Positions 9,110 through 33,013 of a stretch of DNA of 64,000 nt are shown in pieces. Source of the DNA: Desulfatitalea tepidiphila (lineage in GTDB: Bacteria; Desulfobacterota; Desulfobacteria; Desulfobacterales; Desulfosarcinaceae); contig NZ_BCAG01000001.1 of assembly GCF_001293685.1 (NCBI RefSeq), positions 992,001 through 1,056,000 of the forward strand, written 5' to 3'. Below the pieces are notes generated by a model, which ran no database searches, was not told the origin of the DNA, and worked only from the letters and a program-made list of their open reading frames with translations. The stretch's first letter is position 1. Every line of letters begins with the position of its first letter. Both the position numbers and the translations under genes were made by a program.

Positions 9110-9146
9110 AGGGGTTACAGCGTTAGCTGTTGCCCCTGTTTTTTTC
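9110..9146 (+). terminator. Terminator downstream of tRNA-Phe
   Basis: AGGGGTTACAGC and GCTGTTGCCCCT pair around a GTTA loop, with one internal mismatch, and are followed by seven T. The hairpin also covers the stop codon of the convergent integrase gene. Confidence 0.75.
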
Positions 9147-10220
9147 TGTGTGAGAATCCGTGTGAGACTTTTTTCTCGCCCGCTCGAAAACTGCGATGGC
9201 ATCGCGTTCCATATCCCCAATGCTGTGCAGATAGATTTCAGTGGTCTTGCGATTCTCATGTCCCAGGATTCTTTGAATGGCGCCGAGTGGCACATTGCTG
9301 CCATCCATTAGTGAAGCGCCGGCATGTCTCAGCGGATGAAACCTGAAATATCGCACGCCAGCTTTTTCACATAGTCGTTTCATAAGTTTTTTACGATCGT
9401 CAAATGGTCCTTCCACGAAGCAACCGTTTTTGCGGCTCCAATAGCGATGCCAGAACACCCAAGGCTTGCTTGCATCCCGATTGTCATAGCGACTTTTCAA
9501 GACCTCGTAAAGTTTCTGGGTCATAGGGATCTTGCGAGGTGTCAGGTGGCCGCCTTGTTTTTTTCGAGTATACAAAATGACGAAACGCGCATCCAGATTC
9601 ACGTCTTCCCAACGCAGGCGGTTAATTTCACTTACCCTGGCCATAGTTTCTCGAATGGTCCATAAGTAATCCTGCGTTTCAGGGTCTGCGGCCGATATCA
9701 CCTTATCGATTTCCTCATTGTTGGGCACAAACTTTACTCTCTTTTCAACCGGAAAAAAGTCTATGCCCTCTGTCGGGTCGCTGACTATCAGTTTTTTGCG
9801 GATGCCGTAATTCATGGTTGCTCGCAAATACCTCAGGTCCTTGTTTGCTGTGAAGGCCGAAATCCGGCGGCGCTGCGAAAGGTGTTCCTCAATCATTTGC
9901 TGGGTTATTTCGCAGCACATTTTGTGCCGCCATTTTTTCATCCATCCTCGCGCCAGATAAGTGTAGCAGCGATAATGTTCCTCCGAATTGTATGCCCTCA
10001 CATGATCCAGCCGCCTATTGACCAAGTCCAAGAAGGCCATGTCGATCTGGATTGTCTCGGACTGTGTCGGCGGCGGCGCCGGATTTACAATCTCCTCCCT
10101 TCGTTCGTTTTCCGCCTTTCGAGCGGCGCCTTTTGTCTTGAACCAGCCCCTGGTGTGCCTGGTCCCGTTCAGGGTGAAGTCGTATCTCCATCCCTTTGCC
10201 TTTACCGAATAAACGCTCAT
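9123..10220 (-). CDS. Tyrosine-type site-specific integrase
   Basis: This phage-type integrase of 365 aa catalyses recombination between the element and its target, probably the tRNA-Phe 3' end 25 bp away. An N-terminal AP2-like arm-binding part (VYSVKAKGWRYDFTLNGTRH) and a SAM-like core-binding domain (about 60-160) precede the catalytic domain. The catalytic residues are Arg195 in TMARVSEIN, His295 and Arg298 in FHPLRHAGAS, His321 in ILGHENR and the nucleophile Tyr330 in TTEIYLHS. The stop lies inside the tRNA terminator. The HTH gene just upstream overlaps the 5' end. Confidence 0.95.
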   Translation of the reverse strand: MSVYSVKAKGWRYDFTLNGTRHTRGWFKTKGAARKAENERREEIVNPAPPPTQSETIQIDMAFLDLVNRRLDHVRAYNSEEHYRCYTYLARGWMKKWRHKMCCEITQQMIEEHLSQRRRISAFTANKDLRYLRATMNYGIRKKLIVSDPTEGIDFFPVEKRVKFVPNNEEIDKVISAADPETQDYLWTIRETMARVSEINRLRWEDVNLDARFVILYTRKKQGGHLTPRKIPMTQKLYEVLKSRYDNRDASKPWVFWHRYWSRKNGCFVEGPFDDRKKLMKRLCEKAGVRYFRFHPLRHAGASLMDGSNVPLGAIQRILGHENRKTTEIYLHSIGDMERDAIAVFERARKKSHTDSHTEKNRGNS

Positions 10221-14995: not shown

Positions 14996-15056
14996 TGGAT
15001 ACAATGGGACACTGGCCGATCTTAATGTTTGATCGGCCAGTTTCACACCAAAACTT
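14995..15056 (+). repeat. Structured repeat, copy 1
   Basis: TGGATACAATG is followed by a perfect 11-bp hairpin (ACTGGCCGATC, 15011-15021, with GATCGGCCAGT, 15031-15041) and then TCACACCAAAAC. A second copy lies at 15688-15766. Confidence 0.7.
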
Positions 15057-17562: not shown

Positions 17563-20475
17563 CTATTCTTCGGTCCATAAAATATCGGCCTCATCAAGAG
17601 GCTCGTCCACAGCATTACGCAGCCAAGATGGATCGAAACCGTCAGCAGATGAACCCTCGATGCGGATTCGCACCTTGGCGCCGTCGGACTTGTCGGCGAG
17701 GTTCGCAATAGCCGGGAACGCTTTGAAGACCTGTTCCCTGGTGGCTTCGAATGTCATGGCGATCGTTTTCCTTCGACCGGCAGACTCCGCACCTGTAGTT
17801 AATGGTCCCGTAGTGCTTCCAATACCGGTGCTGGTTGGGTCTTCATCCACACTTGGTGTGGGAAGAACTGTGCCTGTATCGACCGGAAACGCTCCGAAGG
17901 GTTGTGCTGCCGGGACCTCTGGGACTGCCTCCGGCATCATGATGAAGCCAGAATCGAAATCGATCTCGTCATCAGCAATAGAGCAACCGATGATCACCTT
18001 GTCGCGGTTCACCTTGTATTTTCCGTCAGAACCGAGAACAAGGTTGCCTCCCATTGCGTAGGCGAAGACGTTTTCCAATACCCCGCGAGCGATCCCCTTG
18101 CGCAGGACCAATCCGGACTCCAACCTGGGAGGCACAATATCCCGGAAAAACGACTCGAGGACATCGGATGCCTTGATGCCCATGAGCAGCAGTTCTCCCT
18201 CGACTAAGGATTTGCCAAGCCGCACTCGCTCGACGATTTTCTGCGGGTTTACCTTTCCGTGAATGCGCGGCGTCCCAATACTGGTAAGCAGTTCCATAAT
18301 GCGCTCGTGGACGCCGGTCGCCTGAAGCGGCCGTCCACCTCGTTCCACTTTTTCGATCTCCAATTCGCCACCCTGAACCCGAGGCAACCAGACGGCTGTG
18401 TAAAGCTCCCGGAAGCACGACTCAACGGCAGACTGCTCCGTACGCTTCCGTTCCCGAAGCTGTTCAAGCTGGTCCTTGGTAAGCCGAAGTTGCTGCTTCT
18501 TGCCTTCAACACGGTCGATGGCCAAAAGATACCGGACGGCGCGCCGTAAGGCTTCGATCTGTTTTTTTTGCGGAATGGCGAGTCCCAGCCCGTTCCGGAA
18601 TCGTCGGGGACGATCTCCGTATTTGGTCAGGTACTCCTTGGCCTGGCGTTCCTGCTCCGACTTGCCCTCGGCGGCGAACTCAAGGGGCAGGTAGGCAACG
18701 AGAAAACGGGGGTCCTCGTCGGGGATGTCCTGGCTCTTAGCTGGCCAGACGATGGTCGTGTGATGGCCGGCCAGCTGGGCGTCCAGCATTTCCATGATTT
18801 GACTTCGGACCGGGCCGTGGCCGCGCGCCTGGGAATCCTCACGGGCAACGGTCTGTTCCGCGTCCTCGATCAGCTTGGTGACATTCGGGTCCTTCTTAAA
18901 GCAGTACCGGACCCCGTCATAATGGAGGTACAAGCATGTGTTGCGAAGCTCGGACAAGACGGCGGTGGCCGTGATGTTGTCCAGCTCGGGACCGACGCTT
19001 GCCGCAAGCAGTTCGTTCTCCGTTACGCCAGGTGGCAGCGTCTCCTCGCTGCCCGAGCCCTCGCGTCGCAATCCACCAAACGAGTATAGAAGGATGGACG
19101 TGGCAATGCGCGTGGCGGGTTTCACGCTGGCAAGCGCAGGCGTCTCACGCGCCATCCTTTCATCAATGCGTTTCGCCCGCGCGTTCGGCCCATCGATATC
19201 TGCCGTGATGACAGGGTCGTAGTCGTTCTGGACCCCAAGCTCTTTGAGCATCTTCACCCTGACATTCACGTCCTTCACAGGCACGTCTCCGGGCCCAAGA
19301 AGCGCCTTGGCCCCGCCGTTCTTCTTCAGGGAATGCATGCATGAGGCGAGAAAACGGAGGGCACCCCGTGTCCGCTGAAAGGCATCCACAGCCGTCCAGC
19401 GTTCCCTCATGATATCGATGAGCGCTGGATGGAATGGATACGCCCCCCGCATCCGATTCCTCAACAGCTGGCCTTCCTCATCAGCCTGCCGACGCTCCGA
19501 CGGCGTTTCGGCATAGGCACGTTGCATGCCGGTTATAACGTCCTGATATGCCATGGATACCTCGGTGGCAGAGGAAGCGTCGGGAGCTTCGCCAAGAAGA
19601 CGCCGCTGAAGAATTGGCAGGACCTCGTCCCCCGAGACTGGTTCTCTGAGCTGGTCCACCCTTGAAGCGAGCTTGTCGATCTCGGCAAGCAACCCGACAT
19701 TGCCCAGGGCCTCCCTGGCACTCCAGGTAAGGGAATAGACGAGCGCCGCCTTCTCACTGCCGGCCACCTCGACGGTCAGGTTCTGAAAGAAATCTTTTGC
19801 CTGGCGCTGCAGGGTGGAATCCAGGACACTGACCGCAGCGGACCGCTCCATGTATTTGAGTACCTCATCAAGGAGGATCAGAACCGGACGACCTTTTGAC
19901 CCCTTGGTAAGCAGATCACGAATTACATCCCCTCCTGGGGCCACGCGGTCCTTGTCGTGATTGGCAACGATGGGATAGGCATTTTCAGGATCGATTTGCC
20001 AGGCAATCCAACCCCACATGGTTTGAATGGTCCGTCCGTCATCCAGCGTCTTGCCATTACGGGCGTCGAATTTCTCGCCGTCGAAAACGGCCACGGCCAC
20101 ATTGCCGGGTCGGGTGAATTCCTTAGCCTCCGGCATTCCGTCCAGCGCTTCTCGGTTTCGTGCGGCATGGAAAAGCGACGCCAACGTGTGAGACTTTCCT
20201 CCGCCGAAGGGTACCCGTAGCTTCAGAACCCGATTGTATCCAGATTTGCCGGAAAGGGACGCCAGCACTTCTTCAAGGAGCTTTCGCAGATCCGAGGTCA
20301 GGTAGGTTGCCTGAAAAAAGGCCCCGGGATCGCGGTTGACCACGGGCACGTTGGGATCACCGGCAGCAATGGCTCCGAGATCAATGGCGAACACTGCCTC
20401 GGTCAGCGCACCTGCTTCTACGTCTGGATGAAGTTTGACCAAGTCGGTCCAAGGACGAAGTGCGTGTGTGTTCAC
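17563..20475 (-). CDS. DUF499 domain P-loop ATPase
   Basis: This large ATPase of 970 aa belongs to the DUF499 family (about 1000 aa), which recurs beside DUF1156 methylases in defence islands. The N terminus carries Walker A in VPFGGGKSHTLASL (GGGKSHT 91-97) and Walker B in PVLILLDEVLKYM (near residue 200). A basic, helical middle and an Ala/Thr/Pro linker near residue 880 lead to a small C-terminal domain (FEATREQVFKAFPAIANLAD). It overlaps the DUF1156 gene by 4 bp and is the last of five coupled genes. An energy-dependent DNA-processing or signalling role is inferred. Confidence 0.85.
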   Translation of the reverse strand: MNTHALRPWTDLVKLHPDVEAGALTEAVFAIDLGAIAAGDPNVPVVNRDPGAFFQATYLTSDLRKLLEEVLASLSGKSGYNRVLKLRVPFGGGKSHTLASLFHAARNREALDGMPEAKEFTRPGNVAVAVFDGEKFDARNGKTLDDGRTIQTMWGWIAWQIDPENAYPIVANHDKDRVAPGGDVIRDLLTKGSKGRPVLILLDEVLKYMERSAAVSVLDSTLQRQAKDFFQNLTVEVAGSEKAALVYSLTWSAREALGNVGLLAEIDKLASRVDQLREPVSGDEVLPILQRRLLGEAPDASSATEVSMAYQDVITGMQRAYAETPSERRQADEEGQLLRNRMRGAYPFHPALIDIMRERWTAVDAFQRTRGALRFLASCMHSLKKNGGAKALLGPGDVPVKDVNVRVKMLKELGVQNDYDPVITADIDGPNARAKRIDERMARETPALASVKPATRIATSILLYSFGGLRREGSGSEETLPPGVTENELLAASVGPELDNITATAVLSELRNTCLYLHYDGVRYCFKKDPNVTKLIEDAEQTVAREDSQARGHGPVRSQIMEMLDAQLAGHHTTIVWPAKSQDIPDEDPRFLVAYLPLEFAAEGKSEQERQAKEYLTKYGDRPRRFRNGLGLAIPQKKQIEALRRAVRYLLAIDRVEGKKQQLRLTKDQLEQLRERKRTEQSAVESCFRELYTAVWLPRVQGGELEIEKVERGGRPLQATGVHERIMELLTSIGTPRIHGKVNPQKIVERVRLGKSLVEGELLLMGIKASDVLESFFRDIVPPRLESGLVLRKGIARGVLENVFAYAMGGNLVLGSDGKYKVNRDKVIIGCSIADDEIDFDSGFIMMPEAVPEVPAAQPFGAFPVDTGTVLPTPSVDEDPTSTGIGSTTGPLTTGAESAGRRKTIAMTFEATREQVFKAFPAIANLADKSDGAKVRIRIEGSSADGFDPSWLRNAVDEPLDEADILWTEE

Positions 20476-23400
20476 TTTTTGGCCTCCGAAAATGGCATTC
20501 TCAGTTGTTTAGATTTCGGATCTACATTAGAAAGGCCGGCCTCAACCAATTGCCGCCAGTTGGCAACGAGTTTCTTTAGCGCAGCCACTTCCGCCGGGGT
20601 AGTCGCCAGTGTGTGTTCCGGTCCGTCGTCCTTCCTGCCGGCCAACGCCGTTCCAGCCAGGGTTTGGGCTACCAGACGCAATCGCTCCCTGTCCGGCCTC
20701 GCCTCGCCGAGGAAATCATTCAGCTTGCGGGGCTCGTTTTCCAGCAGCCAGAGGATGCGGTGCAGGGTGTCGATCAGAGTGGCGGACTTACCGTCATCCT
20801 TTGGCATCCCCAGCTTTTCGTCATCACCACGTTCGGTGAAATCGCGCAACCGGTATTTACCTTTCTTCTTTTCGACCAGCACGCGGCTACCTGATGCGAG
20901 ACCGTTCGGGCCGTCCAGCTCAACGTTCTGGCCATAGGTAAAGACAATAGCCTCGCCCGCGTCTATCTCGGCTGCTTTATATGTGTACCGCCAGAGCACG
21001 TAAAACCGGCTTGGCCCGTCCACTCCGGCTACCCCGCTTCCGGGGACCCCGAAGATCTTCTCGAGAAGTGTCTCCAGCACGACTCCTTCCACCTCGGCCA
21101 GAAACTTCTCGGCCGGGACCTCCTCGCCGTTTGCGTACTCCACCTTTGAAAACCGGGTGAAGGCGCGAAGACCTGCACCCACGGCAGCAATGACCAGATC
21201 CGCTCCTGTGATGCCCATTTTCCAGAGTGAATCCACGCGCTCACGGACGATTTTGTCAAGTTCGGAGCGTATTTCGTCCTCATATGACCCGGTTAATGCA
21301 CCTTCACGTTTGCGGGCAACCAAAAAGATGCTGGACGCAAGCGCCGCTGTTTTTTGCGCATTCTGACGCACTTTTCGTTCCATATCGACCGGCCAAGCCT
21401 CCACAACCAAAAACCCAGCTTTCATCAAGGCATTGATCAGTGTAGACCAACCTGCAGTTGTCTTGTGAGCGTACACGCAAATCAGCGGCATACCAGGACG
21501 AAGGACACGGTTGCATTCGATAAATGCTTCCTCCATCATCTTTTCGTATGCTCGGTCGGCGGTGTCTTTCGATCCTTGGTGCCGGTACTTCGCCGCAATG
21601 GCTTCGTTCTTTTTCGGCGTCAGTTCAGAAGCGAAATGTTCCGAGTGGATGTGTCCAAGGGATCGTTTGTGCCATACAAAGAAATGGTCCGCCAAGTTGG
21701 AGTAGGACCGGCTGTCGTAATAGGGCGGGTCAGTGATAATTGCGTCAAAAGTGTTCTGTTGCCAAGGCGATTTCAGAGCTGAGCCACGTGCAATGATACC
21801 GGGGTAACCAGCCACGGTGAATTCCTCGAGTGCCGCAGCAACATAATCAATAGCGCTTGGCCAACTTCCAGAGGTGTCGACAATGGGATTGGCTTCGGCG
21901 AAATCCATAATCATAGGCAGGCCAGGGCTGTCGAATGTGTGAGCTACGAATTCAGGCTGCCAAGTACAGAAAGAAGTACAATAGTCTGCCAGCCGACCGA
22001 GCGCCATGCTGAGGCAGGTTGCCATAGCCTTAGCAACATCAGGGTCCCCCATCGCTTTGACCAATTCGTCATAGGCTTTTCGGATTTGCCCGGCGAAACA
22101 AGTCATCGCAAGAAGCTGACGTGGTGTAAGGATGTCGCGCCAGTGAGTGAAGCCGTAATGCTGAACATCGAAAGATCGGGGATTCGGTTCAAGAGGTTCG
22201 TTGGGTATGGTCACCCCGTATGCCGCAGCAGCTTCTTCTGCACGCTTATCGAGGCTGCTTTCATCCAAGGCTTGATTGGGAGCGTCTGACGTTGGGAGAT
22301 ATTTCTTTCCGGCAGATCTTGTGCTGGTAGCGACGACGGCCATGAGACGGTGCCCATACCGCTTTGCACAACCTTCGGCCTTCACATAGTCGCTGTCAGC
22401 AACAGTCCCACAAAGCGAACAGGTTGCGTCACCTCTCTTTGAACCTGCTGAAGGGTTGAATCCCAACCCGGCCTCAGACCTTGCTTCAACAACCTCGAAA
22501 CGACTGTCCTTGTTTTTGGGATCAACGCAGATTTTCACGGCTACGTACTTGGGGTCACTTCTTTTTCCGCCACTTTTCTTGCACAGCCAAGTCTGCCTTA
22601 CCAGCGGAACAGCAGCCCCGCACAAAGGGTTTTTGCAGCGAACAGTCCGCGTCCAGATATAGGCAACTGGCACAAGGTAGCCCGGCGGGACTGTTTCCTT
22701 TTGAGATGACTGCCACATTTCGGGCTGTATAGCAGGTTTGTTCACTTTGTAGTAGGGATCGGGTATGAGCGGGTAAAGGTCGCCGATTTGGACCTTGACC
22801 TTCTTGAGTACCCACTCACCCCAGTAACGGACCTCATTGGCCAATCCGCCCCAGGTAGTTTCACCCTTCGTGTTTTTTGGGCCAGTCATGCCATGGGTAT
22901 TCGGGTCGGGTTTTCCGTATTTCTGTGGATAGACCAGGGTACAAAGCTCAATGATGTGCGCCACCGGGTTGAGATCGAGAGCGTAGGCCTCGCAGCCGAG
23001 ACGCAGGGCTTCCAAGGGGATGGCGCCGCCGCCTGCGAACATGTCCAGCACCTTGGGACGTGGGGCCCGGCCTTCTTCGATATCCTCGACTGTGACTTTC
23101 TTGCCGGTCTCTTTGGTCAACCGCTCGGCGTGGGCTTCGAGAATGTGTTTCTGGGCTTCCCTTATTGCACGTTCTATGTCTGCTTTTTGCTGCTTTTTAG
23201 AGTCTGACGGATAGCGGCATAGGCGTTGAATAAACTTGGACGCACTGGCCCGGCCAAGGCTCTGCTTCTTGTTGTCTGGCCCGTTTTCCGGAACGAACTT
23301 CAATGCCGGCACCAACGCGCCATATACTGCAGCCCGGCAAGCCACCAACGGTCGTCTTGCCCACCAAAGGTGGAGAGTCGAGATGTGCCCCTTGCGAATG

Positions 23401-23477
23401 GATTTCTCCCTCGACGCTTCGGCGCTGATGGCCTTTATCGGCAGGAAGTCTTCAATCAATCTACGGTCGTTGGTCAT
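20472..23477 (-). CDS. DUF1156 family DNA methyltransferase
   Basis: This putative S-adenosylmethionine-dependent DNA methylase has 1001 aa. The N-terminal DUF1156 region contains EDFLPIKAISAEASREKS and HLWWARRPL (residues 10-43). The cofactor motif is DMFAGGGAIPLEAL (FAGGGA 147-152) and the catalytic motif TDPPYYDSRSYSNL near residue 582, an amino-methylase type (adenine-N6 or cytosine-N4). Two cysteine pairs (CKNPLC and CSLCGT) suggest zinc ribbons between the motifs. In the operon it probably marks self DNA. The start overlaps the ParA gene stop by 4 bp. Confidence 0.88.
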   Translation of the reverse strand: MTNDRRLIEDFLPIKAISAEASREKSIRKGHISTLHLWWARRPLVACRAAVYGALVPALKFVPENGPDNKKQSLGRASASKFIQRLCRYPSDSKKQQKADIERAIREAQKHILEAHAERLTKETGKKVTVEDIEEGRAPRPKVLDMFAGGGAIPLEALRLGCEAYALDLNPVAHIIELCTLVYPQKYGKPDPNTHGMTGPKNTKGETTWGGLANEVRYWGEWVLKKVKVQIGDLYPLIPDPYYKVNKPAIQPEMWQSSQKETVPPGYLVPVAYIWTRTVRCKNPLCGAAVPLVRQTWLCKKSGGKRSDPKYVAVKICVDPKNKDSRFEVVEARSEAGLGFNPSAGSKRGDATCSLCGTVADSDYVKAEGCAKRYGHRLMAVVATSTRSAGKKYLPTSDAPNQALDESSLDKRAEEAAAAYGVTIPNEPLEPNPRSFDVQHYGFTHWRDILTPRQLLAMTCFAGQIRKAYDELVKAMGDPDVAKAMATCLSMALGRLADYCTSFCTWQPEFVAHTFDSPGLPMIMDFAEANPIVDTSGSWPSAIDYVAAALEEFTVAGYPGIIARGSALKSPWQQNTFDAIITDPPYYDSRSYSNLADHFFVWHKRSLGHIHSEHFASELTPKKNEAIAAKYRHQGSKDTADRAYEKMMEEAFIECNRVLRPGMPLICVYAHKTTAGWSTLINALMKAGFLVVEAWPVDMERKVRQNAQKTAALASSIFLVARKREGALTGSYEDEIRSELDKIVRERVDSLWKMGITGADLVIAAVGAGLRAFTRFSKVEYANGEEVPAEKFLAEVEGVVLETLLEKIFGVPGSGVAGVDGPSRFYVLWRYTYKAAEIDAGEAIVFTYGQNVELDGPNGLASGSRVLVEKKKGKYRLRDFTERGDDEKLGMPKDDGKSATLIDTLHRILWLLENEPRKLNDFLGEARPDRERLRLVAQTLAGTALAGRKDDGPEHTLATTPAEVAALKKLVANWRQLVEAGLSNVDPKSKQLRMPFSEAKK

Positions 23478-24487
23478 GCATTTCTCCGGCGGATGCTCAT
23501 TTTTTTCATCCGTTCCATCAGTTTTTCAGCAAGAGCTTTGAAATCGCCGTATGCCTCATGAGCTGCCTGGGCGTGGCTACCGATTGCACCGTCGGCAGAG
23601 GTAAGATGAAAGATCGGTTTACGTGCCTCTTGCCCCATGGGTATCAAACTTCGATAATGTTTCAATGTGGCCAGACATTCTTCATCCTGTGACGGTTTCG
23701 TGGCGGAAGTAGATTGTTGAAGCACGGCTTCGTGATAGACCCTCGGCATCCGATTGACCCATTTATCATAGGCTTTGACCGGACGGCTGAGTCGAACGCT
23801 GTGTTGCTGAACGATGTAGCCCAATGGTTTCATTCGTCCTTCAGGAATTTCAAATTGGGGTGATTGCCAATTATCTACGCGCTTTTTCCAACCCTCTCGC
23901 CATGAGCGAAGTGTCGGGCCTAAATTCTTCAAACCCTGAAGAGAAAAAAGGTCAGCGCCCAATGGAATGGCAACAAAATCGGAACCAATAAGAGCCGAAC
24001 GATTGATTGCACCAAGATTGGGGCCGACATCCACAAGGACAATATCGGCACTCACTTGTTGGGCCGCCATTTGTGCAACTTGCCAAAACGCTGTCAGAAT
24101 GCGAAAGTAGCGATACAAATTGGGGTCGCCCATACTCTTCGGCCAAGATTCGGATAACAGATCTTCAAATGATGCCAAAGCCACATCTCCGGGGATCAAA
24201 TACAGCCCTTGCGTTATTTTTTCTATACTTGGCTTGATGATATCCCCTACCTGGGTAAGTGGTTTGATGGCCTGATAAATCGTTGAGGGCTTTTTTCCTT
24301 CCTCCTCCCATATGCTTTCGAGTTCATCTTCATCGAGAAACGCTGCGGTCAGATTGGCTTGGGCATCAAGATCAACGGCAACAACCGTATGGCCAAGCTC
24401 GGAAAACATCCAGCCCAGATGATAGACGAGCGAGGTTTTGCCAACTCCGCCCTTGTTGTTGAAAAACGTGAGGACTGGAACACTCAT
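23474..24487 (-). CDS. ParA-family ATPase within defence-type operon
   Basis: This protein of 337 aa is of the ParA/MinD (SIMIBI) class. It has the deviant Walker A KGGVGKTSL (12-20), switch I-like VDLDAQANLT and a Walker B-like strand ending in VLVDVGPNLGAINRSAL. ParA proteins dimerise on ATP and bind DNA or membranes to position cargo. No ParB or centromere repeats flank it. It is locked between the AlbA_2 and DUF1156 genes by 4-bp overlaps, so it belongs to this operon and is not a plasmid partition gene. The C-terminal third is longer than in a minimal ParA. Confidence 0.88.
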   Translation of the reverse strand: MSVPVLTFFNNKGGVGKTSLVYHLGWMFSELGHTVVAVDLDAQANLTAAFLDEDELESIWEEEGKKPSTIYQAIKPLTQVGDIIKPSIEKITQGLYLIPGDVALASFEDLLSESWPKSMGDPNLYRYFRILTAFWQVAQMAAQQVSADIVLVDVGPNLGAINRSALIGSDFVAIPLGADLFSLQGLKNLGPTLRSWREGWKKRVDNWQSPQFEIPEGRMKPLGYIVQQHSVRLSRPVKAYDKWVNRMPRVYHEAVLQQSTSATKPSQDEECLATLKHYRSLIPMGQEARKPIFHLTSADGAIGSHAQAAHEAYGDFKALAEKLMERMKKMSIRRRNA

Positions 24488-25695
24488 GGTCGCCTCCTGA
24501 CCGTGGCCAGCACGGTCATCGGTTCGATTTGGAATTCAAGATCCGGGTTGCCGTTCTTTTTCAATTCTGCTCTGGCTGTCTGAATGCCAATGCCGAACCG
24601 CTGTACAAATCCCAAAACTTTCATAGCATCGGCCAGGTTTGGATTGCGGTAATCCGTGATGCCTGGCCGACCAAAATTTTCTCGGTTTACAATGCCGAAG
24701 GGACCGCCGGGATTGCTGATCTCGATACGGTCGTCAAACCATGTGGCACGCACCGGTGTATTGGTATTTTCATACACCCGGTGCATGACGGCATTGCGGA
24801 TCAATTGCTGTAATGCTGCCCGAGGATAGGGCATCATCCTGGATTCTCGATCCTCTGAAGTGATATCGACATGTATGCGGTTATGGGAATCCATCTTTTC
24901 GTCGATTCTTCGCAGTACTTGTGCCAAATCGCCGTCGATGAGGGCTTCATCTTGAATGGGATCGCTCAAATCCGTACCTTCAATTCGCAGGAACTGAATA
25001 TATGCACCGGGTATCCAGTCTCTTGGAGTTACTCCGATTGTCAAGATTCCCAATATTGTTGGCGCCGGATCGCCAACCGAAGCTATCATGCGACATGAAG
25101 CCAGCTTCTGCTCATAGGATCGTTCGTTGGATGCAATGACGTCAGCAGCAAAGGCGTTCGGCAGGTAAGTCTGTTCAAACAAAAGACGGCTGAGCGCGGA
25201 CAAATCGCAGGTCGGTAAGGGTTGGACATCGAATGGGAGATCTCTATAACGACGTTTCTCGTTTAGAATCCGTTCTTCTTGCGGGGTTGCGATTGCGCCG
25301 CGGGGACCGGTCCTGACCCATATCCTTCCTTTATAACGGACCGGAGGCGTATCGGATGGTTGCACCTTGACCACCGCCATCTCAACACCCTTTAGGATGC
25401 GCTTTTCCACAATAATGGAAGGCAGTGGAAGGATATTGCCATCGGTCTTCATATCGGAGAGCGCAAGGAGCAGTTCGTCGGTTATTGGCAATGCCGATGG
25501 GGTTCCATCATCTTTAGCCCCTACAAATAAAATCCCGGCTTTTTGATGATCGGGCAAATCGTTAGCGAAAGCGCACACCGCCTGCCGCCCTTTGTCTGGG
25601 GCGTCTCCTTTCCATGACTCCTTTCGCTCGGCAAGATCGGATTCTATATCGTCAAGAAAGGTTTCAAGCTCTTTATCGGAATAGCTCATATTCAT
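24484..25695 (-). CDS. AlbA_2 (Schlafen-type) plus HATPase protein, RecG-like
   Basis: This protein of 403 aa opens with an AlbA_2/Schlafen-type nucleic-acid-binding domain: the residues ESWKGD near 22-27, FANDLPDHQKAGILFVGAKD, and VRYKGRIWVRTGPRGAIAT. The C-terminal half is a GHKL-type ATP-binding domain (HATPase_c_4) with LIRNAVMHRVYENTNTP, IEISNPGGPFGIV and the closing YRNPNLADAMKVLGFVQRFGI. Such proteins are often misnamed RecG-related helicases or transcriptional regulators. It is joined to both neighbours by 4-bp overlaps. A sensor role for nucleic acid or nucleotide is inferred. Confidence 0.85.
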   Translation of the reverse strand: MNMSYSDKELETFLDDIESDLAERKESWKGDAPDKGRQAVCAFANDLPDHQKAGILFVGAKDDGTPSALPITDELLLALSDMKTDGNILPLPSIIVEKRILKGVEMAVVKVQPSDTPPVRYKGRIWVRTGPRGAIATPQEERILNEKRRYRDLPFDVQPLPTCDLSALSRLLFEQTYLPNAFAADVIASNERSYEQKLASCRMIASVGDPAPTILGILTIGVTPRDWIPGAYIQFLRIEGTDLSDPIQDEALIDGDLAQVLRRIDEKMDSHNRIHVDITSEDRESRMMPYPRAALQQLIRNAVMHRVYENTNTPVRATWFDDRIEISNPGGPFGIVNRENFGRPGITDYRNPNLADAMKVLGFVQRFGIGIQTARAELKKNGNPDLEFQIEPMTVLATVRRRP

Positions 25696-28600
25696 TCCTC
25701 ATTACCTGATAGATCAATTGCCTCTGCAGAAATTTCATAGAACCTTGCCGCCACGATCTCTTTTTTGGCGTGGTCGAGCTTGGCAGCAGGATTATGGATA
25801 CGCACAAGCTCAGTGGAATCGCCCAATGGGTTCCAAACCACATACAACCAGTAAGTCCCGGCCAACTGTTGGGCCTTATACCACTCGTTGGTGGTTAGTC
25901 TAACTGGTTGCCCTCGTAGACGTCCCTTGACCTCGATTCTCTTGACGAACACTTCACCGGTGGCTTCGTCAGCGATTCTGTGCGCGCGAATGTCGAAACC
26001 CAACTTCAGATGGCCAACGCGTTCGATGCACTCCTTGGAAAAGCCCTCGGCGATCAAAGCCTCAATCACCTTGTTCTCTGCGGCGATCTCGCTCTGCCGG
26101 CGAACATTTGGATCAAGTTCATCGGCCAGGTCGGCAAGCTGGGCCTGGATATCGGCATCAGGGGGGATGACAAAGGCTGTTCCAACATGTTTGACCGGCC
26201 CGGTCCTGGCAATCTCAAGTCGTTTTAAGCCGTCGAGACGCTCCTGTCGTGCGCGCTGGAGTTCATCCACATACTTCCTGGCCTCATCCGCAGGCAACTT
26301 GTATTCCGGTTTCGAGAAGACCTCGGCGGCAAGCAGCATGGCCCGCTCTTGAGCCCGGTCGATCCGGGCCTTAAAAGATTTTTCCAGGTATTCCCGGCAT
26401 ACCCGTGCGAAATGCTGCCGCTCACTCTGACAACGGGCGCGGCATTCGAGCTGATAGGTCCGTTTCAGGAAATCGGTAGCCCCCTGCGTGGGTTTAGGAT
26501 CGATTTCCTGCGGTGGATGCGGATGCGCTGCCAAGTTAAGAAGGATGTCGCTCGGTATCACCTCATAATGCCCTTGTTCTTCGCGAACGGCCACAAGCTC
26601 GCCATAAAGCGGCACATCGTTTCCCTTTGAATCCTTGCCACGGATGGATATCTCGAAAAGGTGGATACTATAGGTCGCACTGCATAGGGGATCAACTAAG
26701 AACCCGATGCCTCCGATCAACCCTGTCAACCGCTCATTAAGTTTCTCGTCCACCGCTGCGTAAAGAGGATGCCCCGGTCCCATCAACACTGCGTCCAGAT
26801 GGGCGTCTTGTTCGAGATGGTGCTTGTGGAAGGTGATCTTGCGATAGCTCGATTCCGGTTTGCCGATCCTCTGTACAGAGCGGAGCCTTTCCGAGCGCAG
26901 ATTCGCAAGAACGTGTTCGACGCGCCACAGCCCGTCGGCCCTTGGTTCGACCCGGAGGCCAACCTCCTTCGCTGCGGCAACGAACTGCGCTTCAACATAT
27001 CGAGGCATAAGCCGACGCTCTTCGACCTCAAGGTTGCGGTGTTGAAATGCAGAAAAATCAACGTGGCTGCGCGCAAGCGCAATGCCCGTGGCTTCCTCGT
27101 ATTCCTTGAGCTTGGCCGGATCAATCCGGTCAATCTGGTCGAGGTACTCATCGAGACGTCTGGGATCGTAGGCCGCATCTCGGAGCATGTCCGGGAGGTT
27201 CACGTCGTTCAGAGACAGCACCTCACCGATCACATCGAACACGCGGCCTTCAAGTGCCTCGTTCATCTGATCGAGCTTTTCCAGTAGGCGATGAAGAATC
27301 CGGCCTTCAACGATAGGCTGGCCATCCTCGGATTCCGTAGCCACGAAGTTGAAAGCATAAACATCCCGGTCTTGGCCGATGCGGTGGATACGGCCCAGTC
27401 GTTGTTCCAGCCGAGTCGGGTTCCAGGGCATGTCATAGTTGATCATTAGGTGGCAAAATTGGAGATTGATACCTTCGCCGGCGGCTTCCGTTGCGATACA
27501 CACCTGTGCCCCGGTCCTGAAAACCTCCTGCGCGCGTTTGCGCTCATGAGGGTTCATGCCGCCGTGGATTTCGCATGTACTAAACCCCCATCTTTCAAGG
27601 TAATCGCGGACGTATCCCAGGGTATCCCGATGCTCGGTAAAAATAAGGAGCTTTCCCCGGCCGTCCTTCAGTTCAAGAAACTGCGCCTCGCCGAGGCACT
27701 GTCTTAATGCGGCCAGCTTGGAATCGTTTGCGTTTTCGCGAACCCGTCGGGCTTGCTCCACCAGTTCCTTTAGGGAGGAGATTTCGGAGCGTAACTGCTC
27801 GAGTTCCAGCGCAGCCGTATATTCATCTACCAACTGATCGCGGACCGTATCGTCGAGATCGTCTTCTTCCTGCTCGGCATCAGGCAGGCGGCCCTGCAGA
27901 ACGGCAAGCCGCTTGGCGCGCTGGGCCGGAGTAAGCCCCTCGAGCTCCTCCAGTAGATCTTCCTGTTTTTTTTGCCGCCGCTTGATCGATTCGTGAATGG
28001 CGCAGGTAGAGCTTACCAATCGGCGCTGCAGGACGGTTCGGGTCAATGCCGCGGACGAACGCCGCTGGCCTGTCTGTTGCGGGATGAATTCGTTGATGTA
28101 AGCAGTGACACTCTTGTAAAGGGCGTACTCGTCACTGTTCAGACAGAATGTGACTGTGTTGGTGTGACGGTCAGGGAAGAGCCGTTTCCCATTGGCGTCC
28201 TTGAGGTCTTCTTTAAGCCGCCGGAGAGACCATGGGGAATCTTTTCCGAGACGGAAAACGTCTTTGCGGATTGCGGCGGCCTGTTTACCGAGACGGTGCG
28301 GTTCCGGGAACAGGTCAGGATCAATAAGCCGGAGGAAATGAGCGAACTTATCTTCATCCCCGTGATGAGGGGTGGCGGTCAGCAAGAGGACATGATCGGC
28401 CTGGGAGGTGAGACGCGATGCCAGGTCGTAGCGCTTTGTTGTCGTAACCTTGGATTCGCGATTCTGTCCACCTGATGCTGTCCGGGCCGAACACTTGTGG
28501 GCCTCGTCGATGATGACCAAGTCCCATCTCTGTTGCCAGACACGCTCACGAACGTCTTCCTGCTTGGCATAGTCAATGGAAGCGATAATTTGTGAAGATC

Positions 28601-29207
28601 TCTGCCATGGATTGGTCAATTGCTGCTGGTCCACAGCCGCAAAGATAATGTCGAAAGGCTCACCGAACCAGCGGAGCATCTCGTCTTGCCATTGTATGGT
28701 GAGTGGGGCGGGGCATAATATAAGAATTCGCTCAATTGCCTCCCGAAGCTTCAGTTCCTTTACCAGGAGACCTGCCATGATCGTCTTGCCGGCTCCCGGA
28801 TCATCTGCCAGAAGGAAGCGCAACCTGGGCTGAGGGAGCATTGCCTTGTAGACTGCTTCGATCTGGTGCGGCAGGGTTCGTATTCCAGAAAGGCTTACAG
28901 CAAACTGCTGATCGTGCGCATAGGCCAATCGCACTCGGGCGGATTCAACCAGAAGCCGAAGTTTCTCGGCGTCCACGGGCTTTTCTGTTTTCGCTTCGCC
29001 AAGCCCCCTTGCAAGCACGGCTACAACCTCTTCGGCGGAGATAACAGCCTCTTCCAACGATCCGTCAGTAAGACGCACCCGACACTCATATCCCGCTGAA
29101 TCATCAGCACCGAGAGATCGAGCACCCTCCAAGGTTACCAAGTCATCAAAATGTCCAGGAAGGCTGATTCGATGTCCTATATAAAACTTGAGCACCTCAT
29201 TATTCAT
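25692..29207 (-). CDS. SNF2/DEAH helicase with C-terminal DUF3883
   Basis: This superfamily 2 helicase/translocase has about 1171 aa. Walker A is in LADDPGAGKTIMAGL, the DEAH box in VIIDEAHKCSA, and the second RecA-like lobe contains LLIFTEHRDTLGYV, IATEAAGEGINLQFC and RLGRIHRIGQ (motifs V and VI of the SNF2/RapA type). The last 120 residues (GFDIRAHR, then RIEVKGR and WYKAQQL) match DUF3883, a nuclease-related domain common in defence helicases, with a DIRA...EVKGR pattern recalling PD-(D/E)XK. The frame is open to GTG 29285, but ATG 29207 (MNNEVLKFYIG) places the family N terminus better. It is the first gene of the five-gene operon. Confidence 0.88.
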   Translation of the reverse strand: MNNEVLKFYIGHRISLPGHFDDLVTLEGARSLGADDSAGYECRVRLTDGSLEEAVISAEEVVAVLARGLGEAKTEKPVDAEKLRLLVESARVRLAYAHDQQFAVSLSGIRTLPHQIEAVYKAMLPQPRLRFLLADDPGAGKTIMAGLLVKELKLREAIERILILCPAPLTIQWQDEMLRWFGEPFDIIFAAVDQQQLTNPWQRSSQIIASIDYAKQEDVRERVWQQRWDLVIIDEAHKCSARTASGGQNRESKVTTTKRYDLASRLTSQADHVLLLTATPHHGDEDKFAHFLRLIDPDLFPEPHRLGKQAAAIRKDVFRLGKDSPWSLRRLKEDLKDANGKRLFPDRHTNTVTFCLNSDEYALYKSVTAYINEFIPQQTGQRRSSAALTRTVLQRRLVSSTCAIHESIKRRQKKQEDLLEELEGLTPAQRAKRLAVLQGRLPDAEQEEDDLDDTVRDQLVDEYTAALELEQLRSEISSLKELVEQARRVRENANDSKLAALRQCLGEAQFLELKDGRGKLLIFTEHRDTLGYVRDYLERWGFSTCEIHGGMNPHERKRAQEVFRTGAQVCIATEAAGEGINLQFCHLMINYDMPWNPTRLEQRLGRIHRIGQDRDVYAFNFVATESEDGQPIVEGRILHRLLEKLDQMNEALEGRVFDVIGEVLSLNDVNLPDMLRDAAYDPRRLDEYLDQIDRIDPAKLKEYEEATGIALARSHVDFSAFQHRNLEVEERRLMPRYVEAQFVAAAKEVGLRVEPRADGLWRVEHVLANLRSERLRSVQRIGKPESSYRKITFHKHHLEQDAHLDAVLMGPGHPLYAAVDEKLNERLTGLIGGIGFLVDPLCSATYSIHLFEISIRGKDSKGNDVPLYGELVAVREEQGHYEVIPSDILLNLAAHPHPPQEIDPKPTQGATDFLKRTYQLECRARCQSERQHFARVCREYLEKSFKARIDRAQERAMLLAAEVFSKPEYKLPADEARKYVDELQRARQERLDGLKRLEIARTGPVKHVGTAFVIPPDADIQAQLADLADELDPNVRRQSEIAAENKVIEALIAEGFSKECIERVGHLKLGFDIRAHRIADEATGEVFVKRIEVKGRLRGQPVRLTTNEWYKAQQLAGTYWLYVVWNPLGDSTELVRIHNPAAKLDHAKKEIVAARFYEISAEAIDLSGNEE

Positions 29208-29297
29208 CTGGCATCCCAGCACCGTCATTTTCAGGACAAAGGCATACGCTCGATAGCATGATTCTGTATCCCCAGTCCTATCCACTACTTAAAGGAG

Positions 29298-30022: not shown

Positions 30023-30141
30023 TTAGGTGTTTAGGGTGTTTTGAGGTGTTTAGCTGGAGGGTTAACACCTAATAAGTGGGCTATTGCATTGTTTTATTTA
30101 TGAAGATTTGATTCGATTATTTAGGTGTTAAGGTGTTTAGG
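30023..30141. repeat. Cluster of AGGTGTT repeats
   Basis: The heptamer AGGTGTT or a close variant occurs at about 30025, 30034, 30044, 30123 and 30130, and inverted at 30065 (AACACCT). Binding sites for a protein, or decayed iterons, are possible. Confidence 0.45.
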
Positions 30142-30557
30142 GCGATTTCGGCTGTTGGATTATTATTCTCGCATCATAGGCTCGAACATACCTGAAATTC
30201 ATGGTAGTAACCTGTCGCCAAGATTTATAGCTGTACCGTTTGGTAATCACTCGGATTTAGGGTACGTTGATTGTTACGTATAGCCGTTTATAATCACAAC
30301 TTGGGCAATTCTGCAGGTACTGGTATTTAACAACAGGATTCGATAGCCTTAAGGTTCCCGGGAATTCTCAATCCATTATCTAAAGCAACCACAATATATG
30401 GTATGGTCCAGACAGAGGCCGGGGTGCTGAATGTTTATATCATTCCTCGACGGCCGCAATTGGATGAACAATGGCGAATATGGCCAACATTCCTTTGAAG
30501 GGTCTCTACCACTATGCGAAAATGGGTGCTACGTTTGAATGGGATATTATTAATCAG

Positions 30558-31007: not shown

Positions 31008-31430
31008 TCAGTCGGTGGCAAAGCCGAACTGGCGGCGCTGCTCGGCCCAGTCCTCCGGGAAGGTCTGGGTCAGTTTGGCCAGCGAGAGCCCGTTGGGTTC
31101 CTCGCCGTTGATCAGGGCTTCCACGATGTCGGGGGCCAGGGTCGTCAGTTTGAGGATGCGGGCCACATACGAGCCATCGACGTCGAGGGTACGGGCAAGC
31201 TCGCTGATGGACTTGATCTGGCCGGATTCGAGGATGTCGGCCCAGGAAAAGGCCCTTCCCAGCGCCTGAAGGACGGCGGACTGCACCGGTTCCTGCGCTC
31301 CGGGGATATCTCCATCCAGGGCCTGGGGAGCGATGACCGTCTTGCGGCCGCGCATGCGCCGGATCAGCATCGGGATGTGGATCTGCAGGTTGCCGTTGTC
31401 GGCTACGGTAATGGTCGGCTTCATTTTCAT
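31008..31430 (-). CDS. HTH protein of the recombinase operon (KorB/ParB-like HTH)
   Basis: This protein of 140 aa starts MKMKPTITVADNGNLQIH. The middle contains a helix-turn-helix, IKSISELARTLDVDGSYVAR, then ILKLTTLAPDIVEALINGEE, like the HTH of ParB/KorB proteins. ATG 31430 overlaps the recombinase stop in an ATGA, so it is translationally coupled. Homologous small HTH genes commonly follow serine recombinases of this type. A directionality or regulatory role is likely. Confidence 0.75.
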   Translation of the reverse strand: MKMKPTITVADNGNLQIHIPMLIRRMRGRKTVIAPQALDGDIPGAQEPVQSAVLQALGRAFSWADILESGQIKSISELARTLDVDGSYVARILKLTTLAPDIVEALINGEEPNGLSLAKLTQTFPEDWAEQRRQFGFATD

Positions 31431-33013
31431 CGGCTTACCCTCCGTTCGGTGACTTCGCATGCCAGACCAGCCAGCTCGGCGATGAGTGTTGTCAGCCCGT
31501 TGGTGCGCAGCTCCATATCGATTCCGGTCTCCCGGATCTCCACCTTATCCACCAGGAGGCGGATGAGCCTGTTTCGCTCCACCGGGAAAAGGTCTTCCCA
31601 GAAGCCCTCGACATTCTGGAAGGCCTCCGAGACATCCTGCTCCGTGATGCTGTTCCCCCGGTAGGCTCTGCATCGCTCGCTCACGTGCGTCAGTTGTTTC
31701 GAGAGCTCGACCGCCTGGCGGTTGACGGTCGTGAGCATCTCGGCCTTGCCCGGCTGATCGCTGCCGGGTTTCATCAGTTCGAGTGCCTGCTCCCTCGCCT
31801 GCGACAGCTCCATCTCGAGCTGGGCTTTCTGCTTGAACAGCCGCTCCCGCTCCGCCTGCTCGATGTCCCGGGCCGCGAAGAAGGTTTTGGCCACCAGCGT
31901 CGGCGTGCGAAACACCGCGCTCAACTGCTCAATCACGGCCTGCTCGATGTCCCCGGCGGGAATCCGTTTGAGCGGACACCGGCTCACGGTCCGCTTGCTG
32001 TCCTTCTGGCAGATGTAATAGGTGTAGTGGCGGCCGTTCTTGCGGGCGTAGGTCGGTCCCATCGCGCATCCGCAGTGGCCGCAGCGGATAACGCCCTTCA
32101 GCGGGGCAACCATTTTGGTTCTGGCCATGGAAACCTTGACCGGCTTGTTGTCCTCCAGGATGGCCTGCACCTTGTCCCAGGTTGTCCGGTCGATGATTCC
32201 TTCGTGCTCGCCGGGGTAGCTGCGGTCCTTGTGGGCGATCTCACCGATATAGATCCGATTGTTGAGAAGCCGGTAGATATGGGCGGTGTTCCATTCGGAG
32301 CCCTCGCGAACCTTGCCTTTCTTGGTGGTCCAGGCCTTGGTGTGGTATCCCTGTTCGTTCAATTCCTGGCCTAGCTTCTTGGCCGAGCCGATCTGGATGA
32401 AGCGGCGGAAGATGTACTGCACCGTCCTGGCTTCATCCGGGTTGACCATCAGTTTCTTGTTCTCCCGGTCGACGTCGTATCCGAGGATGGGTACGCCGCC
32501 GCAGTATTTCCCCCGGCGCTTTGCTGCCGCCACCTTGTCCCGGATGCGCTCGGCGATGACTTCCCGCTCGTACTGGGCGAATGTGATCAGGATGCCGAGA
32601 AACATCCGGCCGGTGGGATCGGTGGTGCTGAAGTGCTGGGTGACCGAGACGAAGCTGACACCCTTCTCGTTGAAGAGGTCGATCATCTTCATGAAGTCCA
32701 GCAGCGAGCGGGACAGCCGGTCGACCTTGTAGACGACGATCACATCGATCTTCCCGGCGTCGATGTCTGCCAGCAGGCGGCGCAGCCCCGGACGCTCCAT
32801 GTTCCCGCCCGAGAAACCACCATCGTCATAGCGATCCGGCAGAGCCGTCCAGCCCCGCATCCTCTGAGCTTCGATATAGTGTTCCGCCGACTCCCGTTGC
32901 GCATCCAACGAGTTGAACTCCTGTTCGAGCCCTTCCTCATGACTCTTGCGGGTGTAAATGGCGCAGCGCAGGGTCTTGTTTTTGCCCGGCGCGACATTGC
33001 TGTTATCAAGCAT
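31427..33013 (-). CDS. Large serine recombinase (site-specific integrase)
   Basis: This protein of 528 aa has the resolvase catalytic domain first: nucleophile Ser25 in CAIYTRKSHEEG, then VIVVYKVDRLSRSLLDFMK and GRMFLGILITFAQYERE. A Recombinase domain follows (GVPILGYDVD), then a zinc ribbon (IRCGHCGCAMG with a second Cys pair ICQKDS and RCPL) and a long coiled coil (about 390-450). Such enzymes integrate phages between short attP and attB sites. It overlaps DUF2924 upstream by 8 bp and the HTH gene downstream by 4 bp. Confidence 0.95.
   Translation of the reverse strand: MLDNSNVAPGKNKTLRCAIYTRKSHEEGLEQEFNSLDAQRESAEHYIEAQRMRGWTALPDRYDDGGFSGGNMERPGLRRLLADIDAGKIDVIVVYKVDRLSRSLLDFMKMIDLFNEKGVSFVSVTQHFSTTDPTGRMFLGILITFAQYEREVIAERIRDKVAAAKRRGKYCGGVPILGYDVDRENKKLMVNPDEARTVQYIFRRFIQIGSAKKLGQELNEQGYHTKAWTTKKGKVREGSEWNTAHIYRLLNNRIYIGEIAHKDRSYPGEHEGIIDRTTWDKVQAILEDNKPVKVSMARTKMVAPLKGVIRCGHCGCAMGPTYARKNGRHYTYYICQKDSKRTVSRCPLKRIPAGDIEQAVIEQLSAVFRTPTLVAKTFFAARDIEQAERERLFKQKAQLEMELSQAREQALELMKPGSDQPGKAEMLTTVNRQAVELSKQLTHVSERCRAYRGNSITEQDVSEAFQNVEGFWEDLFPVERNRLIRLLVDKVEIRETGIDMELRTNGLTTLIAELAGLACEVTERRVSR

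What the first reader, a model, noticed from the sequence alone, without database searches (positions are those of the whole stretch)
17563..29207. Five-gene coupled operon: SNF2-DUF3883 helicase, AlbA_2/HATPase, ParA, DUF1156 methylase, DUF499 ATPase
All four junctions are 4-bp ATGA-type overlaps, so the genes act as one unit. Helicase, DUF1156 methylase and DUF499 ATPase are families that recur in defence islands; the extra ParA-like and Schlafen-type AlbA_2/GHKL proteins are not part of any defence system I can name with certainty (not DISARM, BREX or a standard R-M). The methylase suggests self-marking and DUF3883 a nuclease-linked attack. It rides on an integrated element, as defence cargo often does.
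Basis: partly seen in the sequence, partly recalled or inferred. Interest (0 to 1): 0.83.

Follow-up and report, generated by a model that had tools for sequence, protein, structure and literature searches.

The report
Schlafen-ParA cassette inside Hma defence operon
A known kind of bacterial anti-virus gene set has a second, separately mobile two-gene module (a predicted RNA-cutting enzyme plus a ParA-type ATPase) slotted neatly into its middle, at a spot where related bacteria carry many different toxin or defence modules.

Summary
In detail: five minus-strand genes, all four junctions 4-bp overlaps. It is not one unknown five-gene system. Three genes are a complete Hma system (PADLOC HmaA/B/C), renamed 'Type-1 BREX-related (BR)' in 2026. 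The other two, a Schlafen-type AlbA_2/GHKL protein and a ParA-like ATPase, form an autonomous pair: in 78 of 80 ParA relatives (59-81% identity, 20 phylum labels) the AlbA_2 gene lies upstream on the same strand; 3 of 80 touch genes like the window's Hma genes. The pair sits exactly between hmaA and hmaB. In six sibling Hma loci compared, DNA similarity stops near the hmaA stop and resumes at the hmaB start, and the slot holds other modules (DarT-macro, HD-domain, Schlafen, DUF4062-GHKL genes). The AlbA_2 protein keeps the Schlafen Glu-Glu-Asp pattern; its fold is closest to DIP2311 and its N-terminal part resembles the SAMD9 tRNase domain; the ParA is closest to DIP2308 of the same species. 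Distant ParAs pair with SIR2 or HEPN genes. Best reading: a restriction-like first layer carrying a swappable, ParA-gated toxic RNase as second layer. Function is inferred, not shown. New variant of a known kind.

The parts
25692..29207 (-). hmaA: SNF2/SF2 helicase with C-terminal NOV_C (DUF3883) PD-(D/E)XK-like nuclease domain; longest ORF starts at 29285
   Evidence: PADLOC HmaA 625.6 bits, E 4.2e-188; Pfam Helicase_C, SNF2, NOV_C
24484..25695 (-). cassette gene 1: Schlafen-type SLFN_AlbA_2 RNase-like domain + GHKL/HATPase_c_4
   Evidence: Pfam; AlphaFold2 model pLDDT 90.7, pTM 0.65; DIP2311 Z 23.0 (rmsd 14.8), SAMD9 tRNase domain Z 9.4; E18/E23/D62 in 70/69/63 of 70 sequences
23474..24487 (-). 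cassette gene 2: ParA/Soj-like SIMIBI ATPase, 337 aa, ATPase domain starts at the N-terminus
   Evidence: Pfam AAA_31; model pLDDT 93.6; best PDB match DIP2308 3pg5; K12, K17, D39, D41, D153 in 49 of 49 sequences
20472..23477 (-). hmaB: DUF1156 adenine-type methylase, middle region divergent from siblings
   Evidence: PADLOC HmaB 443.7 bits; Pfam; identity profile
17563..20475 (-). hmaC: DUF499 AAA+ ATPase without the N-terminal extension seen in some relatives
   Evidence: PADLOC HmaC 369.4 bits; Pfam DUF499
23478..25691 (-). HmaA|HmaB cargo slot, here filled by the AlbA_2-ParA cassette
   Evidence: DNA similarity to six sibling loci ends at 25716-25734 and resumes at 23470-23480; slot filled in 24 of 34 visible junctions of the phylum survey
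9123..10220 (-). tyrosine integrase beside tRNA-Phe, possible integration module of the element
   Evidence: Pfam Phage_integrase; tRNA
31427..33013 (-). large serine recombinase upstream of the operon
   Evidence: Pfam Resolvase, Recombinase, Zn_ribbon_recom

Best explanation
A complete Hma / Type-1 BR system (helicase-nuclease HmaA, adenine methylase HmaB, AAA+ ATPase HmaC) carries an autonomous two-gene cassette in its HmaA|HmaB slot. First layer (inferred from the published BR model): HmaB marks self DNA at a site set by its variable middle region, HmaC scans and assembles on unmarked DNA, HmaA translocates and its NOV_C domain cuts. Second layer (inferred here): the AlbA_2 protein is a latent Schlafen-type RNase, most likely against tRNA or rRNA, held off by its own GHKL ATPase and by the ParA ATPase; a signal of infection, or failure of the first layer, releases it and translation stops (abortive infection). 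Shown: gene content, intact motifs, folds, autonomy of the pair, exact slot, different slot contents in siblings. Not shown: RNase activity, antitoxin or sensor role of ParA, any phage phenotype.
For: Near-full-length PADLOC matches to HmaA, HmaB, HmaC; for the pair only partial matches (50 bits to an Argonaute-associated model, 23 bits over 41 residues). AlbA_2 upstream of ParA on the same strand in 78 of 80 relatives, within 40 bp in 76; exact 4-bp overlap in 60 of 76 callable; 20 phylum labels. L055, L057, L058 of the 80 touch Hma genes; of the 43 with at least 3 kb on both sides only L058 does, and L111 has a distant helicase. Same genus: G010 carries the pair without Hma beside it. In six of six sibling loci compared, DNA similarity breaks at the slot edges. 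Slot contents in relatives include DarT+macro twice, an HD gene (one by Pfam, two more by likeness), SLFN, SLFN-NB-ARC-TPR, DUF4062-GHKL, YhcG nuclease, GmrSD, Fic, OLD-TOPRIM. E18/E23/D62 have nearly the spacing of Slfn13 E205/E210/D248; the AlbA_2 part matches the SAMD9 tRNase domain. ParA keeps its ATPase residues. Distant ParAs pair with SIR2 (7 loci) or HEPN (3 loci), and a ParA/HEPN dyad was proposed as toxin-antitoxin in 2013.
Against: No activity or phage data. By sequence the SLFN11/12 matches are at noise level (E 0.3-0.8, with a sortase at 0.28 in the same list); the SLFN link rests on Pfam, fold and residue spacing. D62 is N or K in 7 of 70. Flanks of 32 standalone pairs hold a mixture of defence and housekeeping genes, and no matched control was possible. 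Some distant ParAs have no partner (4 of 12 plasmid loci, 3 of 3 phage loci). The preference for A|B over B|C fades if the 12 invisible B|C junctions are all counted as filled. Many loci are short MAG contigs (37 of 80 have under 3 kb on at least one side). The tree shows the Hma-linked ParAs only weakly clustered (26 of 500 shuffles as low).
Confidence: 0.55

Rival explanations
1. The pair is a plain addiction (toxin-antitoxin) module: AlbA_2 toxin, ParA antitoxin, kept because it stabilises the Hma locus or the mobile element, without sensing phage.
For: DarT+macro pairs and a HigBA-type pair sit in the same slot in relatives; pairs stand alone in many genomes; Anantharaman 2013 proposed ParA as antitoxin for HEPN (passages).
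Against: Gene order differs between partners (AlbA_2 upstream, SIR2/HEPN downstream of ParA); DarTG itself is reported as phage defence (title and start of abstract of PMC11481870 in the listing), so the two readings overlap.
Confidence: 0.2
2. The pair is regulatory or positional: GHKL/AlbA_2 as transcription or DNA-binding regulator and ParA to place or segregate the element or the Hma complex on the nucleoid.
For: ParA fold and residues are those of Soj/ParA; the GHKL part resembles histidine kinases and SpoIIAB.
Against: No wHTH seen by Pfam in the 403-aa protein; no ParB-like match among the 13 window proteins scanned; partner swaps to SIR2 and HEPN effectors fit toxins better.
Confidence: 0.14
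3. All five proteins form one obligate machine.
For: Four 4-bp overlaps; the same five-gene order in an Elusimicrobiota MAG, L058, and helicase-AlbA_2-ParA-DUF1156 in G161.
Against: 77 of 80 ParA relatives show no gene like the window's Hma genes in the DNA held (distant BR genes could be missed); ten close sibling Hma loci with a visible junction have another cargo (nine) or none (one).
Confidence: 0.06

Closest known systems
Hma system (PADLOC; Payne 2021, PMC8565338, passages read)
   Same: HmaA, HmaB, HmaC all present at near full length and in operon order
   Different: Two extra genes between HmaA and HmaB; the paper describes a three-gene operon
Type-1 BREX-related (BR) system (Rakesh & Krishnan 2026, PMC12839542; sections 29, 33, part 1 of 35 and passages read, supplements not seen)
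   Same: DUF499 ATPase + DUF1156 N6-methylase + SNF2 helicase with C-terminal nuclease; paper reports Schlafen-RNase/histidine-kinase/wHTH genes close to BREX and BR loci in at least 1017 taxa
   Different: The terms ParA-like, ParA ATPase, MinD and SIMIBI do not occur in its main text; no fixed exchange slot between helicase and methylase is described in the parts read
ParA/Soj-HEPN dyad (Anantharaman 2013, PMC3710099, passages read)
   Same: ParA-like ATPase paired with an RNase-type toxin gene; ParA proposed as antitoxin
   Different: Here the partner is a Schlafen/GHKL protein encoded upstream of ParA, not a HEPN protein
C. diphtheriae DIP2311 (3lmm) and DIP2308 (3pg5), structural-genomics entries
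   Same: Closest solved folds of the AlbA_2 protein and of the ParA; the locus numbers lie three apart in one species
   Different: Only about 16-24% identity; function and gene order there not examined
PrrC-type guard nucleases inside type I R-M operons (recalled, no call)
   Same: Toxic RNase gene embedded in an R-M operon as second layer
   Different: Unrelated proteins; coupling to the R-M complex not shown here

Membership tests
Hma / Type-1 BR system | DUF499 AAA+ ATPase | tested here: met
   Pfam DUF499 E 6.6e-27; PADLOC HmaC 369 bits
Hma / Type-1 BR system | DUF1156 adenine methylase with SAM and DPPY motifs | tested here: met
Hma / Type-1 BR system | SNF2 helicase with C-terminal PD-(D/E)XK nuclease (NOV_C) | tested here: met
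   NOV_C E 2.8e-14 at 1070-1161; D..EVK motif
Hma / Type-1 BR system | Methylation and phage restriction | not testable with these tools
   No methylome or phage data
Type-2 BR system | N-terminal HKD/PLD nuclease in helicase and DUF3780 gene | tested here: not met
   No such Pfam match in the five genes
BREX / Type-3 BR | PglZ (and BrxB/iSTAND) in the locus | tested here: not met
   No PglZ or BrxB match among the nine proteins scanned, helicase list cut at 25 of 54
DISARM | DrmD at equivalog cut-off, with partner genes | tested here: not met
   NF038317 371 bits against cut-off 610
Schlafen-type RNase | AlbA_2 fold with Glu-Glu-Asp active site | tested here: met
   Pfam, SAMD9 tRNase Z 9.4, E18/E23/D62; sequence match to SLFN11/12 at noise level
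Schlafen-type RNase | RNA cleavage | not testable with these tools
   -
ParA plasmid partition system | ParB/centromere-binding partner gene | tested here: inconclusive
   No ParB-like match among the 13 window proteins scanned; the other ORFs were not scanned
ParA/Soj-HEPN toxin-antitoxin dyad | HEPN partner beside ParA | tested here: not met
   Partner is AlbA_2/GHKL

The most novel reading that the evidence does not exclude
ParA-like (SIMIBI) ATPases of about 330 residues are a general control subunit of two-gene toxic immune modules whose effector is exchanged (Schlafen/GHKL RNase, SIR2, HEPN). The Schlafen-ParA pair alone is an undescribed module spread over about 20 phyla. In Hma/BR systems the HmaA|HmaB junction is a dedicated bay in which such second-layer modules are swapped between closely related restriction cores, alongside exchange of the methylase recognition region.
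Probability: 0.5. Interest if true: 0.75.

Novelty: new variant of a known kind. Interest (0 to 1): 0.6.

Why it matters
It would make a ParA-type ATPase, known for moving plasmids and chromosomes, a recurring switch of immune toxins, and give a precise map of where restriction-like systems load a second, suicidal layer. Siblings with 72-85% identical DNA over most of the core but different cargo are natural experiments: the same kind of restriction engine can be compared with Schlafen-ParA, DarT-macro, HD or no cargo, which makes the question 'do embedded toxins guard the host system?' directly testable.

Tried and rejected
Rejected: an unknown five-gene system (core is Hma); DISARM, BREX, Type-2/3 BR (membership rows). 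Considered: that slot cargo compensates for HmaC proteins lacking the N-terminal (HEPN-type) extension; not supported: of 17 loci, the extension of 157-173 residues occurs only in four with a filled slot, and the three with an empty slot lack it.

Led nowhere: direct-repeat and 3-mismatch searches for attR of tRNA-Phe; 16S in the own genome (no match); Rfam on 8-34 kb found only the tRNA; promoter/terminator scan at chance level. Flank survey of standalone pairs with PADLOC/Pfam: 124 ORFs from 32 loci (38 of the 80 were eligible; the list stopped at the residue limit, ORFs over 1500 aa left out) gave a mixture of defence families (each in 1-3 ORFs) and housekeeping hits, without a matched control. 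Absence from print rests (terms in PMC12839542) and on library searches, which cover only open-licence PMC papers; subscription papers and bioRxiv were not searched.

Dropped rows: the A|B slot count uses the 34 HmaB loci with both gene ends visible; the loci chosen because of ParA (window, L046, L058; L050 has no visible junction) and the plasmid loci L212-L217 were left out. B|C count: 17 of 29 loci visible; 12 not visible, of which one (L140, the same place as L168) has a 4.8 kb gap in the larger region. Fisher p 8.5e-5 applies to visible junctions only. Hma genes near the 80 ParAs were sought with the window's own proteins only (over 60 bits), so distant BR genes could be missed. Identical contigs: L043 = L055 and L016 = L061.
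Full report
WHAT IS THERE. Five minus-strand genes overlap by 4 bp at each junction. Pfam gives SNF2/Helicase_C/NOV_C, SLFN_AlbA_2+HATPase_c_4, AAA_31 (ParA-like), DUF1156+methylase and DUF499. PADLOC gives HmaA (625.6 bits, residues 102-1152), HmaB (443.7) and HmaC (369.4) for genes 1, 4 and 5; the AlbA_2 and ParA proteins have only partial matches (50 bits to an Argonaute-associated model over residues 144-388; 23 bits over residues 3-43). So the core is a Hma system (PMC8565338, passages), which PMC12839542 reclassifies as Type-1 BREX-related (sections 29, 33, part 1 of 35, and passages). That paper's antiphage evidence for a helicase-nuclease (its reference 112) was seen only as a citation; the paper itself is not held.

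THE PAIR IS AUTONOMOUS. Of 39 relatives searched, two carry the ParA at 65-69% identity: G010 (same genus) and G037 (same order) have AlbA_2 directly before ParA with no Hma gene beside them (the G037 AlbA_2 is shortened); G003 keeps a 46-residue remnant. AlbA_2 lies upstream on the same strand in 78 of 80, within 40 bp in 76; L109 and L127 lack it. Of 76 loci where both genes could be called, 60 have exactly the 4-bp overlap. Tree labels cover 20 phyla. L055, L057 and L058 of the 80 touch genes like the window's Hma genes: L058 (Elusimicrobiota MAG) has the same five genes, L057 an hmaA-end remnant, the pair and an hmaB fragment, L055 an hmaA-end remnant; L111 has a distant helicase (27%) upstream. 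Of the 43 loci with at least 3 kb on both sides, only L058 does so (plus L111's helicase). In a separate survey of 395 genomes of the window's phylum, 12 besides the own carry the ParA at E <= 1e-40. Of these 12, AlbA_2 is beside it in 10 (broken in L047 and L049, both genes broken in L052), SIR2 in one (L053), neither in one (L054); three sit in BR-type loci: G389 (same contig as L055), G161 (helicase-AlbA_2-ParA-DUF1156) and G291 (DUF1156 methylase-AlbA_2-ParA-helicase that by its N-terminus looks like the PLD type). On the ParA tree the Hma label (5 rows) needs 4 changes; window, L055, L057 and L058 fall in a supported 9-row set (99/86) that also holds five ParAs without Hma genes seen; shuffled labels gave 4.9 changes on average and 26 of 500 were as low. 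The cassette therefore seems to have entered or left such loci more than once.

THE SLOT. HmaB relatives were sought in 395 genomes of the phylum (43 with a match, own included). The closest siblings (hmaA up to 92%, hmaC up to 93% protein identity) lack the pair. In six of six siblings compared by blastn, similarity runs to window 25716-25734, stops, and resumes at 23470-23480, that is, at the end of hmaA and the start of hmaB. In one of them (G132) a second 144-bp copy of the hmaA end lies inside the slot; with the hmaA-end remnants before the pair in L055 and L057 this hints that cargo can move together with the hmaA 3' end. Ten close siblings (hmaA 55-92% identical) have a visible junction; nine are filled: DarT+macro (G352), HD-domain gene plus a small unnamed gene (G200 by Pfam; G292 and G312 by likeness), SLFN-NB-ARC-TPR plus a gene like the DUF4062 one (G132), DUF4062-HATPase (G236), SLFN-HATPase (G140), YhcG/DUF1016 nuclease (G427), unnamed genes (G171); G215 is empty. 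More distant ones hold DarT+macro+OLD-TOPRIM (G059), GmrSD (G368), Fic (G128), DUF4062-HATPase (G389), SLFN-HATPase (G208, G410, G179), AbiEii-like AAA (G371), YhcG (G161). On plasmids, a Planktothrix slot holds a HigBA-type pair (annotation). Counting junctions with both ends visible, the A|B gap is >= 400 bp in 24 of 34 and the B|C gap in 2 of 17, with 12 B|C junctions not visible; if all 12 were filled the contrast would fade. Between residues 201 and 700 the methylase is 20-56% identical to that of sibling G171 in each 50-residue block, but 82-98% between 751 and 950, as expected for exchange of the target-recognition part.

WHAT THE TWO PROTEINS LOOK LIKE. The AlbA_2 model (70 sequences, pLDDT 90.7, pTM 0.65) matches DIP2311 of C. 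diphtheriae over the whole chain (Foldseek E 2.3e-18; Z 23.0 but rmsd 14.8, so domains are differently placed), the SAMD9 tRNase domain at Z 9.4 over residues 2-153, a RecG-related AlbA_2 domain at Z 9.8 over residues 4-132, and many GHKL proteins over residues 229-403 at Z 9-10. SLFN11 appears in Foldseek at E 4e-4. By sequence the SLFN11/12 matches are at noise level (E 0.3-0.8; a sortase has 0.28), though they align the two glutamates. E18 is in 70, E23 in 69 and D62 in 63 of 70 sequences; spacings of 5 and 39 compare with 5 and 38 for E205, E210, D248 of Slfn13 (passages of PMC5862951). GHKL residues N301, H305, R306, G330 and G331 are in 70 of 70. The ParA model (pLDDT 93.6) matches DIP2308 best; K12, K17, D39, D41 and D153 are in 49 of 49. 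That both nearest structures come from one species with locus numbers three apart fits a partnership, but that locus was not inspected.

PARTNER EXCHANGE. Of 2870 plasmid records with a distant ParA (96 covering 80% or more), 12 loci at 24-34% identity were read: SIR2 directly downstream in six (L012, L013, L014, L218, L219, L224), HEPN in two (L220, L223), no partner in four (L011, L015, L221, L222). Two genomic loci add SIR2 (L053) and HEPN (L018), Pfam-confirmed; the others rest on annotation or phmmer similarity. Three phage ParAs (Pf1, ST160, a Helicobacter prophage) stand alone as annotated. A ParA/Soj-HEPN dyad was proposed as toxin-antitoxin in 2013 (PMC3710099 passages), so the ParA-plus-toxin idea is not new; the Schlafen and SIR2 versions were not found in the searches made.

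MECHANISM. First layer as in the BR model: self-marking, scanning, helicase-driven cutting (by analogy only). Second layer: a latent Schlafen-type RNase gated by GHKL and ParA ATPases, fired during infection or when layer one fails. The strongest indirect support is the company kept in the slot: DarT-macro, GmrSD, Fic, OLD-TOPRIM, other Schlafens. Rivals are an addiction module or a regulator.

SURROUNDINGS. A tyrosine integrase follows tRNA-Phe. In six relatives of the genus none of the window's genes beyond the tRNA was found after the same tRNA, apart from a 27%-identical integrase in one; one of the six contigs ends within 3 kb. No attR was found, and a hairpin like that behind the tRNA in relatives is still present directly behind it, so simple insertion into the tRNA end is not shown. 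The element's ends are unknown; a serine recombinase lies at 31427-33013.

Noticed in passing
L012, L013, L014, L053, L218, L219, L224: A distant ParA relative is followed directly by a SIR2-type gene in seven loci of different lineages: a possible ParA-SIR2 two-gene module, in L013 and L053 beside a DNA methylase gene.
   Followed up: partly
L018:3793-5321, L220:3989-5628, L223:3989-5630: Distant ParA followed by an overlapping HEPN gene, like the ParA/Soj-HEPN dyad proposed in 2013.
   Followed up: partly
L225:3067-4020, L226:3989-5062: Lone ParA-like genes of this broad family in inovirus Pf1 and in the repressor region of the P22-like phage ST160; no partner annotated beside them.
   Followed up: no
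window 30025-30156 and 14290-14604: Short AGGTGTT-type direct repeats upstream of the operon and again near 14.3-14.6 kb; could be recombinase arm sites or regulatory repeats.
   Followed up: no
window 15007-15054 and 15720-15767: A 48-nt direct repeat (83% identical, 713 bp apart) that looks palindromic, in the AT-rich part of the element.
   Followed up: no
L054:5024-9489: In G068 a remote ParA is next to a cyclase-like ORF and a nucleoside-deoxyribosyltransferase-like ORF (read by eye only), possibly another effector pairing.
   Followed up: no
window 20472-23477 against L167, L171: HmaB middle region far more divergent than its C-terminal part between siblings with 86-93% identical HmaA and HmaC: apparent exchange of methylation specificity.
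   Followed up: partly
L164 (oriented) 7409-7552; L055 843-971; L057 543-734: Extra or left-over copies of the hmaA 3' end beside slot cargo, as if cargo moved together with that end.
   Followed up: no
after tRNA-Phe, window 9100; L238-L243: None of the window's genes behind tRNA-Phe is found behind it in six relatives of the genus, except a distant integrase in L241; compatible with an insertion hot spot.
   Followed up: partly
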